Shown here one piece after another: positions 49,968 to 53,175 of a DNA stretch of 64,000 bases. The DNA comes from an uncultured Pseudomonadota bacterium (lineage in GTDB: Bacteria > Pseudomonadota > Gammaproteobacteria > Burkholderiales > Rhodocyclaceae), in assembly GCA_903870055.1 (NCBI GenBank), contig CAIQBG010000024.1, positions 62,001-126,000 of the forward strand. Direction: 5' to 3'. The number at the start of each line of letters is the position of its first letter. Within the stretch, counting starts at the first letter, position 1. The position numbers and the translations under genes are program-made. The notes beneath the pieces are model-generated. The model made no database searches, had not been told where the DNA came from, and saw nothing but the letters and a program-made list of their open reading frames with translations.

Positions 49968-51179
49968 ATGCTTAAACGCTGGTTCCCTATGATGGTCTTT
50001 GCTGTGGGGCTGTTGGCAGCCATTTTTACGGCTACCTTGCCTGAACGCCCACAGTTTGGGCAACCTGATCAAGCTACGGCAGCGTTGGCTGCCACAAAGG
50101 CCGCTGCTTTGCCCGCAAGCTTTGCCTGGGCAGACTTGCCAAGGCCAACGCCCTCCGCACATGCTGCAACCCTGGCAGAAGTATTGCCGGGTACGCGTTT
50201 GCCCGTTGACAGAACAGAACAGGATCTGGAGCCGGTACATCTGGTCGCGGCCTGGTTCGGCGGTAGCCGGGAAGGCGCGGCGGACGTCTCCCTATACCAG
50301 GCAGACTGGCATGCAAATGCCTCCTGGTTACCTGCGCGGGAAATTATGACGCGACAGCAAGCTGAACGAGAACTGGGTCGTAATATCCGTAAGCTGGGAA
50401 ATCCCCTGATCGTTACAGAACCTGGCCGGCTACATTTATTCTTTGTGAGTGTTTCTTACGGGGGTTGGGCTGGGAGCGCTATTAACCGCAGCACCTCCAC
50501 GGACGGCGGTAAGTTCTGGCAGCCATCACAACGTATTGTGACCAGTCCATTCTTTAATCTGAGTACGCTGGTACGCAACCCGGGCACCTGGTTATCTGAC
50601 GGCAGCCTGGGGTTGCCCGTTTATCACGAGTTTGTGACCAAGCATGGCGAGTGGCTACGCCTGGACCCCGAAGGCCGTGTTCTAGCCAAAGAGCGGATGC
50701 CAATGCCGCGGGCCACATTGCAGCCGGCCGTGGTTGCGCTGGATGGTCAGAATGCCGTTGCCGCACTGCGTGATGCCGGACCCGGCGAAAACCAGGTCCA
50801 ATGGAGCGAAACACATGATGCTGGGCGTAGCTGGCAAGCGGGATCGGCTCGAACCATTCCTAATCCGAATTCTGCGGTCGCGATGATCGGGCTACGCGAT
50901 GGTAGCCTGCTGATGGCCGGAAACCCGATTGGCGGTAACCGTAACCAACTCTCTCTGTTGCGCTCCACTGATCAGGGAAGCACCTGGACCCTGGTACGTG
51001 TTGTAGAACAAAGCCCGAATGACCGTGATGAATTTTCCTATCCGGCACTGATTCAGGATCGTACCGGGGCCATACACCTTGTGTATACCTGGTTACGTAA
51101 GGGCATTCGACATGCCCGATTTACCCAGGCCTGGCTGAATAATCCAGGCAACCCCACTGTACCGGCGGTACCACAATGA
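49968..51179 (+). CDS. Sialidase-fold (BNR/Asp-box) protein with N-terminal anchor
   Basis: 403 residues. An N-terminal hydrophobic segment (about 5-22, WFPMMVFAVGLLAAIFTA) is a signal or anchor. Three Asp boxes (S/T-x-D-x-G-x-x-W pattern) are seen at about 177-184 (STDGGKFW), 282-289 (THDAGRSW) and 333-340 (STDQGSTW), the mark of the six-bladed sialidase propeller. An early AAWFGGSREGA segment resembles the FAEGR-type arginine motif. Catalytic residues are not confirmed, so it may act on another sugar or only bind. Its stop overlaps the next gene. Confidence 0.8.
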   Translation: MLKRWFPMMVFAVGLLAAIFTATLPERPQFGQPDQATAALAATKAAALPASFAWADLPRPTPSAHAATLAEVLPGTRLPVDRTEQDLEPVHLVAAWFGGSREGAADVSLYQADWHANASWLPAREIMTRQQAERELGRNIRKLGNPLIVTEPGRLHLFFVSVSYGGWAGSAINRSTSTDGGKFWQPSQRIVTSPFFNLSTLVRNPGTWLSDGSLGLPVYHEFVTKHGEWLRLDPEGRVLAKERMPMPRATLQPAVVALDGQNAVAALRDAGPGENQVQWSETHDAGRSWQAGSARTIPNPNSAVAMIGLRDGSLLMAGNPIGGNRNQLSLLRSTDQGSTWTLVRVVEQSPNDRDEFSYPALIQDRTGAIHLVYTWLRKGIRHARFTQAWLNNPGNPTVPAVPQ

Positions 51180-51727
51180 TGTTGCCTGATCGTATATTCA
51201 TGCGTTTGCTGCGTTTGCCATATGTGCGCACACGCATGCTTATCATGTTGCTGTCGCTGGTGATGTTCGTGCCTTTGGCAGATCAGCTACTGTGGCGTTA
51301 CGTTTATGGCTTTATTAATGATCTGAGCCCAGGCACCTGGCTGATATTTTTTGTCTGGCTTGGCTTCCCCGACGCTTTTAATTTCTGGGTACGTGAAGAG
51401 TTGGCTTTCAAGCGCCGACTGATCCTCTGCCTGGGAATGCTGTGTTTCTATGTGTTGGCGCTTGGCGCTATCCCGTTTGACCCATATGCCTACGGTTTTC
51501 AGCCTTGGATTATTCTGTTTGGGTTGACTGCCTGGGTAGCCTGGCATGGCCGCAATGCAGCGGGGATTACCCTGTTGCTCGGTATTGATCTGGCCGTTTA
51601 CGCACTGCATGGACTGGCTTCAGATAACCTCTGGGATTACCTCTTTGATCCGGTCATGATGATTGTTCTCGCTATTAGTCTCATCCGCCCGCTCATGTCT
51701 CGTCGTAAAATCCGCTCTCAATCCTAA
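51176..51727 (+). CDS. Unrecognised small integral membrane protein
   Basis: 183 residues, about five membrane helices (about 24-44, 52-68, 82-100, 112-128, 135-165). I do not recognise a family. It begins MMLPDRIFMRLLRLPYVRTR, with a basic cytoplasmic start, and ends in a basic tail. Its ATG overlaps the sialidase-fold gene stop (ATGATG), so the two are coupled and probably act together. The pair lies beside the LPS/glycan genes and ahead of ppiD. Function unknown. Confidence 0.6.
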   Translation: MMLPDRIFMRLLRLPYVRTRMLIMLLSLVMFVPLADQLLWRYVYGFINDLSPGTWLIFFVWLGFPDAFNFWVREELAFKRRLILCLGMLCFYVLALGAIPFDPYAYGFQPWIILFGLTAWVAWHGRNAAGITLLLGIDLAVYALHGLASDNLWDYLFDPVMMIVLAISLIRPLMSRRKIRSQS

Positions 51728-51741
51728 CCTTAGGCTGTTCC

Positions 51742-53175
51742 ATGTTTGATCTCGTTAATAAACATCGTAAATTTGTTCAGATCTTGCTCGCCATGATCAC
51801 GCTGCCATTTGCCTTCTGGGGTATTGATTCCTATTTCAAGGATGCCGCGTCGACAGACGAAGTAGCGCGTGTGGGCAGCAGCAAAATCACCATGCAGCAA
51901 CTGGATGTGGCTATGCGTGAGCGCGCAGATCAAATACGCAGCCGTCAGGGAGGCTCGGTGGATGCCAAACTATTCGAGTCACCTGAGTTCCGTCAGAGTG
52001 TTCTAAACGAACTGGTCGAGCAGCGTTTGCTACTGGTCGAGTCGGAGCGCCTGGGGCTGGTGGCCAATGATGTCATTTTGCGTGAGCTGATCGCCCAGAT
52101 TCCTGCGTTCCAGGAAAACGGTAAATTCTCACCGACGAAATACGAACAAGTATTGCGTGCACAGGGTATGAACCCGACCACTTTCGAACAGAACCTGCGT
52201 CGTGATCTGACACAACAGATGCTGGTGAATGGCGTGGCTGCAACCACACAGATTTCCAAGACTCAGCTGAACCAGATCATTACGGCTGAATCACAGGAGC
52301 GTGATGTGTCAGTTGCCATGATTTCTGCGAGTGATTACCTGAAATCGGTCAGCGTGAGCGATGAAGCGGTTCGACAGTTCTATGAATCCAACCCCAAGCA
52401 GTTCCAGACGCCGGAACGCGTTAAGGTGGCTTATGTCGTGCTGAGTGACCCTAAGGTTGTTGCCAAAGAGTCTGAGAATTTCAGCAATATGGTTTACGAG
52501 CAATCGGATAGTTATAAAGATGTCGCCAAAGCACTTAACCTGAAGGTGGAAGAGAGCGGTTGGATTAGTGGCAATGCTCAGGGCGCACAGGGTTTGCTGG
52601 CGAACCCGAAGGTACTGCAAACCATCTTTAATCCGGGTAGCCTCAAAGATAAGCGGAATAGTGCGGCGATTGAAGTTGCGCCCAATGTGCTGGTTTCGGT
52701 GCGTGTTACAGAATACGAACCAGTTGGCTTACGTCCATTTGATGCGGTTTCTGCAGATATTAAAACCTATTTGACGCGTAAAGCAGCTGTCGAAAAGGCA
52801 ACGGCTGACGGAGAAGCCAAGCTTGCTGAACTCAAAGCTGGCAAAACGCCGGCTGATTTAAAATGGTCGGCCAACAAGAGTGTGAGCCGTCTGCAGCCGA
52901 ATGGTTTGCCGGGGGATGCCGTGCAACTCGTGGGTGCTGTCGATGCTGCAACCTTGCCGGCCTATACTGGTGGTCAGGCGGGCGGTGAGGGTTATGCGCT
53001 TTACAAGGTCAGTGCCGTTAAATCGGGTGCGGCACTCGGTGATGAAAAGCGTGCGCAGATTGGTATGGCTTATCAGCGTTTTGTACAACAGGCTGACGTG
53101 GTCAGTCTGATGGTGGGCTTGCGTGATCGTCACCCGGTAAAGATTGCCAAGCGACCAGAAGCTGAGAAGCAATAA
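51742..53175 (+). CDS. ppiD: PpiD-type periplasmic chaperone lacking the parvulin domain
   Basis: 477 residues. The N-terminal region is classic PpiD/SurA_N: cytosolic MFDLVNKHRKFVQILLAMIT with a membrane helix (about 12-28), then the helical chaperone domain (about 35-200). Around residues 228-246 the sequence passes from VKVAYVVLSDP directly to ESENFSNMVYEQSDSYKDVA. In betaproteobacterial PpiD, these two parts normally flank a parvulin PPIase domain, giving about 620-640 residues. No HIL, GDLG or parvulin motif is found here, so the domain is missing in frame. C-terminal region is retained. Probably a membrane-tethered chaperone near SecYEG. Confidence 0.88.
   Translation: MFDLVNKHRKFVQILLAMITLPFAFWGIDSYFKDAASTDEVARVGSSKITMQQLDVAMRERADQIRSRQGGSVDAKLFESPEFRQSVLNELVEQRLLLVESERLGLVANDVILRELIAQIPAFQENGKFSPTKYEQVLRAQGMNPTTFEQNLRRDLTQQMLVNGVAATTQISKTQLNQIITAESQERDVSVAMISASDYLKSVSVSDEAVRQFYESNPKQFQTPERVKVAYVVLSDPKVVAKESENFSNMVYEQSDSYKDVAKALNLKVEESGWISGNAQGAQGLLANPKVLQTIFNPGSLKDKRNSAAIEVAPNVLVSVRVTEYEPVGLRPFDAVSADIKTYLTRKAAVEKATADGEAKLAELKAGKTPADLKWSANKSVSRLQPNGLPGDAVQLVGAVDAATLPAYTGGQAGGEGYALYKVSAVKSGAALGDEKRAQIGMAYQRFVQQADVVSLMVGLRDRHPVKIAKRPEAEKQ

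What the first reader, a model, noticed from the sequence alone, without database searches (positions are those of the whole stretch)
51742..53175. PpiD without its parvulin domain
The N-terminal anchor and chaperone half and the C-terminal half are both present, yet VKVAYVVLSDP runs straight to ESENFSNMVYEQSD, where a parvulin domain of roughly 150 residues is expected. E. coli PpiD's parvulin domain has little or no isomerase activity, so this could be a natural chaperone-only form. The join is in frame, with no stop or repeat nearby.
Basis: partly seen in the sequence, partly recalled or inferred. Interest (0 to 1): 0.6.

Follow-up and report, generated by a model that had tools for sequence, protein, structure and literature searches.

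The report
PpiD chaperone that lost its isomerase domain
A river bacterium's export-channel chaperone, PpiD, has cleanly lost the proline-isomerase domain inserted in it; the loss holds across its genus and recurs in many other small-genome bacteria, so nature has repeatedly made the chaperone-only protein that biologists once built by hand in E. coli.

Summary
Window 51742-53175 encodes a 477-residue PpiD with no canonical parvulin domain; 151 residues are missing against its nearest full-length relative. It is no assembly error: all five genomes of the genus share it, including the finished Fluviibacter phosphoraccumulans chromosome, and the gene is under purifying selection. What was lost is an insert: in full-length PpiD the parvulin sits inside the 'third domain', itself a degenerate parvulin fold, which here is closed up. 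The lost domain was probably not already dead as in E. coli: 42 of 43 full-length PpiDs of the family keep the catalytic His-Asp-His. And it is not unique: parvulin-less PpiDs occur in several other Burkholderiales lineages, in Coxiella endosymbionts and in 15 families of a class survey, mostly with small genomes; the tree needs at least eight changes. SurA with both parvulins, a stand-alone parvulin and PpiD's partner YfgM are retained. Best reading: a natural chaperone-only, Sec-associated PpiD-YfgM unit. Its function is inferred, not tested.

The parts
51742..53175 (+). ppiD gene, 477 aa, without the canonical parvulin domain
51742..51843 (+). N-terminal membrane anchor (residues 1-34, helix 9-34)
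   Evidence: secondary structure; conserved alignment
51853..52293 (+). NC chaperone domain, N-terminal part (about residues 38-184; SurA_N_3 covers 1-161)
52354..52737 (+). 'Third domain', a degenerate parvulin-like fold (residues 205-332) into which the true parvulin is inserted in relatives
   Evidence: domain scheme from PMC9643414
52444..52476 (+). Junction (residues 235-245, SDPKVVAKESE): linker helices and parvulin are absent here
52738..53037 (+). 'Second domain', C-terminal part (about residues 333-432)
   Evidence: PMC9643414
53041..53151 (+). C-terminal helix of the NC domain (about residues 434-470), YfgM contact region in E. coli
53245..54066 (-). fabI, convergent with ppiD: synteny marker shared with full-length relatives

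Best explanation
This is the orthologue of PpiD from which the inserted parvulin domain, with its flanking linker helices, was deleted in frame in the ancestor of Fluviibacter. The host 'third domain' closes up, leaving a folded, membrane-anchored chaperone (NC domain plus two parvulin-like scaffold domains). It most likely works with YfgM at SecYEG as a holdase for proteins emerging into the periplasm, without prolyl-isomerase activity; SurA and a stand-alone parvulin would supply that activity. Shown: architecture, conservation, locus, predicted fold, presence of YfgM and SurA. Inferred: binding to Sec and YfgM, holdase function, lack of isomerase activity.
For: Same form in all five genus genomes, one a finished chromosome. 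dN/dS 0.034-0.072 over the gene; 0.013-0.018 at the junction in the two pairs where dS could be computed. AF2 model pLDDT 92.2 with the junction well ordered; top Foldseek hit is the solved PpiD-YfgM complex 8zht. The full-length relative's model has the same elements plus the parvulin at about 260-366. ppiD-fabI convergent synteny shared with full-length relatives and tree position inside the family make it the orthologue. YfgM lies between hisS and bamB. E. coli PpiD with the parvulin artificially deleted complements and is a stronger chaperone in vitro (PMC2956729). Recurrent loss elsewhere shows that the protein stays useful without the domain.
Against: No experiment on this protein. In E. 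coli the deleted form was present at lower level, suggesting reduced stability (PMC2956729). The retained third domain has a parvulin fold, so an isomerase or peptide-binding role cannot be excluded by sequence alone. The C-terminal part evolves faster than the rest (dN 0.10-0.30).
Confidence: 0.8

Rival explanations
1. The gene keeps a diverged but working isomerase: the parvulin-like third domain (221-335) took over catalysis after the canonical domain was lost.
For: Residues 221-335 match parvulin structures (3gpk Z 9.5 over 100 residues, SurA domain II 4g2p Z 8.7) and Pfam Rotamase_2. The Campylobacter PpiD-like protein Cj0694 was reported active (PMC5368265), although related Campylobacterales sequences score only 5-12 bits with the parvulin profile.
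Against: The catalytic histidines align with Tyr231 and a valine (weak alignment). The same residual signal appears when the parvulin is removed in silico from 104 full-length PpiDs (2-23 bits, median 11; query 16), so it is the ordinary third domain and nothing regained.
Confidence: 0.1
2. Neutral decay: the deletion is a by-product of genome reduction and the protein is on its way to loss.
For: Lineages with the loss have smaller genomes (15 families, median 1.7 Mb, against 2.8 Mb in 99 retaining genomes; Mann-Whitney one-sided p 1e-4, not corrected for phylogeny). Some small-genome lineages show no PpiD match at all.
Against: Strong purifying selection and intact ORF in all five genomes; a whole family (f18, 25 of 26 genomes) keeps the short form.
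Confidence: 0.08
3. Assembly or sequencing deletion at 52444-52480.
For: The window comes from a 73-contig draft.
Against: Independent genomes of the genus, one finished by hybrid long-read assembly, share the same junction.
Confidence: 0.005
4. The short form arose once and spread by horizontal transfer among small-genome bacteria, because three groups share nearly the same junction.
For: Fluviibacter, g91 and f18 join the strand to the E-x-F-(S/A)-N helix at the same place. AU tests do not reject one clade for all 'direct-join' forms (p 0.0985), Fluviibacter+f18 (p 0.083) or g91+f18 (p 0.47).
Against: Fluviibacter+g91 as one clade is rejected (p 0.0155). Fluviibacter PpiD is nearest to its own family's full-length proteins (up to 45% against 31-35%) and sits at the ancestral ppiD-fabI locus. 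The shared junction is explained by the shared insertion point of the domain.
Confidence: 0.08

Closest known systems
E. coli PpiD (b0441)
   Same: Membrane anchor, SurA-like NC domain, second and third domains, YfgM partner; 26% identity over the common parts
   Different: E. coli keeps the inserted parvulin, catalytically dead (both histidines absent); the window protein lacks the whole insert
Artificial PpiD-deltaParv (Matern et al. 2010, PMC2956729)
   Same: PpiD with only the parvulin removed; a functional chaperone in vivo and in vitro
   Different: Engineered with restriction sites; the natural form also lacks the linker helices and is fixed in a genus
SurA
   Same: Related NC chaperone domain plus parvulin modules; its chaperone core works without them (Behrens 2001, cited in PMC2956729)
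   Different: Soluble, no PpiD second/third domains; Fluviibacter SurA keeps both parvulins
Other natural parvulin-less PpiDs found here (g91, f18, g182/g183, G042, G106, G229, Coxiella endosymbionts, 15 families of the class survey)
   Same: PpiD core kept, parvulin profile at most about 22 bits
   Different: Several retain the linker helices (77-93 residues in the gap region instead of 37-46)

Membership tests
PpiD | N-terminal transmembrane anchor and SurA-like N domain | tested here: met
   SurA_N_3 E 5e-47; helix 9-34
PpiD | Second and third domains and C-terminal NC helix | tested here: met
   Alignment to E. coli PpiD and AF2 model; top Foldseek hit 8zht
PpiD | Inserted parvulin domain (the feature behind the name) | tested here: not met
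   No PF00639/PF13616 match; 151 residues missing. It is filed as an orthologue of PpiD without this domain, not as a PPIase.
PpiD | NCBIfam equivalog PRK10788 above its cut-off (493 bits) | tested here: not met
   183 bits in two stretches; full-length relatives were not scored against this model
PpiD | Orthologous locus and tree position | tested here: met
   ppiD-fabI synteny; nested among family PpiDs
PpiD | YfgM partner encoded | tested here: met
   TPR_21 E 6e-51 between hisS and bamB
PpiD | Binds SecYEG/YfgM and acts as holdase | not testable with these tools
   needs bench work
Parvulin PPIase | Parvulin fold | tested here: met
   Residues 221-335, Z 6.5-9.5 to parvulin domains; this is the degenerate third domain
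Parvulin PPIase | Catalytic His-Asp/Cys-His | tested here: not met
   Histidines align with Tyr231 and Val in a weak profile alignment

The most novel reading that the evidence does not exclude
The parvulin of PpiD is a removable module, probably catalytically competent in most lineages sampled, that has been excised many times, often at the same hinge, in small-genome bacteria, and its loss is favoured because it makes a stronger or simpler Sec-YfgM holdase, as the artificial E. coli deletion suggests in vitro.
Probability: 0.25. Interest if true: 0.65.

Novelty: new variant of a known kind. Interest (0 to 1): 0.5.

Why it matters
What PpiD's isomerase domain is for has been an open question since the E. 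coli domain was found inactive and dispensable. Repeated natural loss, from lineages whose relatives keep the catalytic residues, is evolutionary evidence that the core job of PpiD is chaperoning, and it supplies ready pairs of relatives (Fluviibacter against Azovibrio/Dechloromonas; G106 against G191) to measure what the isomerase adds. It also shows an annotation trap: these proteins still match Pfam Rotamase_2 and could be called peptidylprolyl isomerases on that ground.

Tried and rejected
Assembly error: rejected by five genomes including a finished one. Pseudogene: rejected by dN/dS. Diverged canonical parvulin: rejected by in-silico excision of 104 full-length relatives, which leaves the same residual score (a first excision cut at wrong alignment columns and was redone). 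Parvulin moved elsewhere in the genome: PF00639 finds only SurA and a stand-alone secreted parvulin that relatives also have. PDB sequence search did not find the PpiD structure; the fold search did. Searches for papers on natural parvulin-less PpiD found none in the open-licence library; subscription journals are not covered. Locus L230 (548 aa) looked like another loss but keeps the parvulin and is cut by a contig end.

Full report
The gene. Window 51742-53175 (+) is a 477-codon open reading frame. The window lies in G000:C24 of a 2.05 Mb draft genome, 99.96% complete. The same genus holds G001, whose main contig is 2,295,374 bp, exactly the chromosome size of Fluviibacter phosphoraccumulans SHINM1, a finished hybrid assembly (PMC7936642). 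The genus is therefore taken to be Fluviibacter (Rhodocyclales).

The observation. Pfam finds the SurA-like N-terminal domain (SurA_N_3, E 5e-47) but not the parvulin families Rotamase or Rotamase_3. In a full-length family member these score 3e-29 and 1e-34. A six-frame search of five genus genomes with PF00639 rings in SurA and in stand-alone parvulins, never in ppiD. Aligned with 161 other PpiDs, the stretch matching query residues 225-265 holds 184-201 residues in full-length proteins and 41 in every Fluviibacter protein. The closest full-length relative used is 151 residues longer. The other four genus proteins are 81-90% identical to the query, with dN/dS 0.034-0.072 over the gene and 0.013-0.018 at the junction in the two pairs where dS was not saturated. 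dS is high in all pairs, so these ratios are rough, but they speak clearly against decay.

What exactly is gone. In the published E. coli model, PpiD is built of an NC chaperone domain, a second domain, a third domain and the parvulin; the third domain is split by the parvulin inserted in it (Q228-F261 and K360-K470 in that paper's numbering; PMC9643414). In Fluviibacter the first strand of the third domain (RVKVAYVVLSDP) runs straight into its long helix (ESENFSNMVYEQSDS). Missing are the linker helix, the parvulin and the first half of the following helix. The AF2 model of the query has mean pLDDT 92.2, with 92-96 around the junction. Its best Foldseek hit is the solved PpiD-YfgM complex 8zht. 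Residues 221-335 align with parvulin folds, for example 3gpk Z 9.5 over 100 residues and SurA domain II 4g2p Z 8.7. So the host third domain is itself parvulin-like, which explains the Rotamase_2 match at 205-337. The control: removing the parvulin in silico from 104 full-length PpiDs leaves a residual parvulin-profile score of 2.1-23.2 bits, median 11.2; the query has 15.8. The residual signal is thus ordinary, and in the profile alignment the catalytic histidines fall on Tyr231 and a valine.

The lost domain was probably not dead. The E. coli parvulin lacks both catalytic histidines and is reported inactive (cited in PMC2956729 and PMC5368265). But 42 of 43 full-length PpiDs of the window's family, and 120 of 129 overall, keep His-Asp-His; five of the six nearest relatives examined also keep Met and Phe of the active site. 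Whether they are active was not tested.

Locus and partners. ppiD converges with fabI in Fluviibacter and in full-length relatives (G014, G007, Dechloromonas L041, L012) and in G042, so this is the orthologous locus. YfgM is encoded between hisS and bamB, SurA has both parvulins and a 267-aa secreted parvulin is present (hisS and bamB named from their sequences). Full-length relatives have SurA and stand-alone parvulins too, plus the PpiD domain.

How common. In a survey of 61 family genomes from 60 genera, the other genera with a complete ppiD show open frames of 630-705 codons and keep the insert, except G042, which keeps linker helices but no parvulin. Order and family surveys add genus g91 (4 of 4 genomes), family f18 (25 of 26 genomes matched; 12 proteins read in full, all without the insert), genera g182/g183 (4 read), and G106 and G229 in f44, where G191 of G106's own genus keeps the domain. 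A Coxiella endosymbiont of a tick has it too (L057). A class survey found matches in 296 of 321 genomes; 20 further proteins from 15 families were fetched and all score 3-22 bits with the parvulin profile, against 124-202 for full-length ones; one of these 20 (G362) is probably the L057 organism again. The count is a lower bound, since the match list was cut. On a 115-row tree that leaves the junction out, full/lost needs at least 8 changes, and the 'direct-join' form 3. AU tests reject Fluviibacter+g91 as one clade (p 0.0155) but not Fluviibacter+f18 (0.083), g91+f18 (0.47) or all direct forms (0.0985), so the exact number of origins is uncertain. Families with the loss have smaller genomes (median 1.7 against 2.8 Mb, one-sided Mann-Whitney p 1e-4), one genome per lost family against 99 retaining genomes copied from the listing, without phylogenetic correction. 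Small genomes that keep the domain exist (G254, 1.2 Mb, 187 bits).

Mechanism. Matern et al. deleted this domain in E. coli: the protein still complemented fkpA ppiD surA and surA skp defects and protected citrate synthase better than wild type, though it was present at lower level (PMC2956729). By that analogy, and with anchor, NC domain, scaffold domains and YfgM all retained, the Fluviibacter protein most likely is a Sec-associated holdase without isomerase activity. Binding, localisation and activity remain untested.

Verdict. Real, genus-wide, and one case of a recurrent architecture change of a known chaperone that I did not find described in the papers searched. New variant of a known kind; interest 0.5.

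Noticed in passing
window 49968-51179 and 51176-51727: A BNR_2 (sialidase-like) protein and a 183-aa membrane protein without Pfam match lie directly upstream of ppiD on the same strand (15 bases from it) in the Fluviibacter genomes checked; no match to them was found in the (short) flanks of other family members' ppiD. Possibly a genus-specific operon partner.
   Followed up: partly
L077, L084 (Campylobacterales): PpiD-like proteins of about 490-506 aa score only 5-12 bits with the PpiD parvulin profile, yet Cj0694 of C. jejuni was reported to have isomerase activity (PMC5368265); L084 does match Rotamase_2 well (E 2e-19).
   Followed up: no
G053, G033, G178, G223, G265: Genomes at least 92% complete with no PpiD match even at E 0.001; either diverged beyond reach or lacking PpiD.
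   Followed up: no
G413:C54:8859-9593: A PpiD match inside a 3210-codon open frame; unexplained.
   Followed up: no
G001:C1:412825 and 1000457: F. phosphoraccumulans SHINM1 has two stand-alone parvulins where the window genome has one.
   Followed up: no
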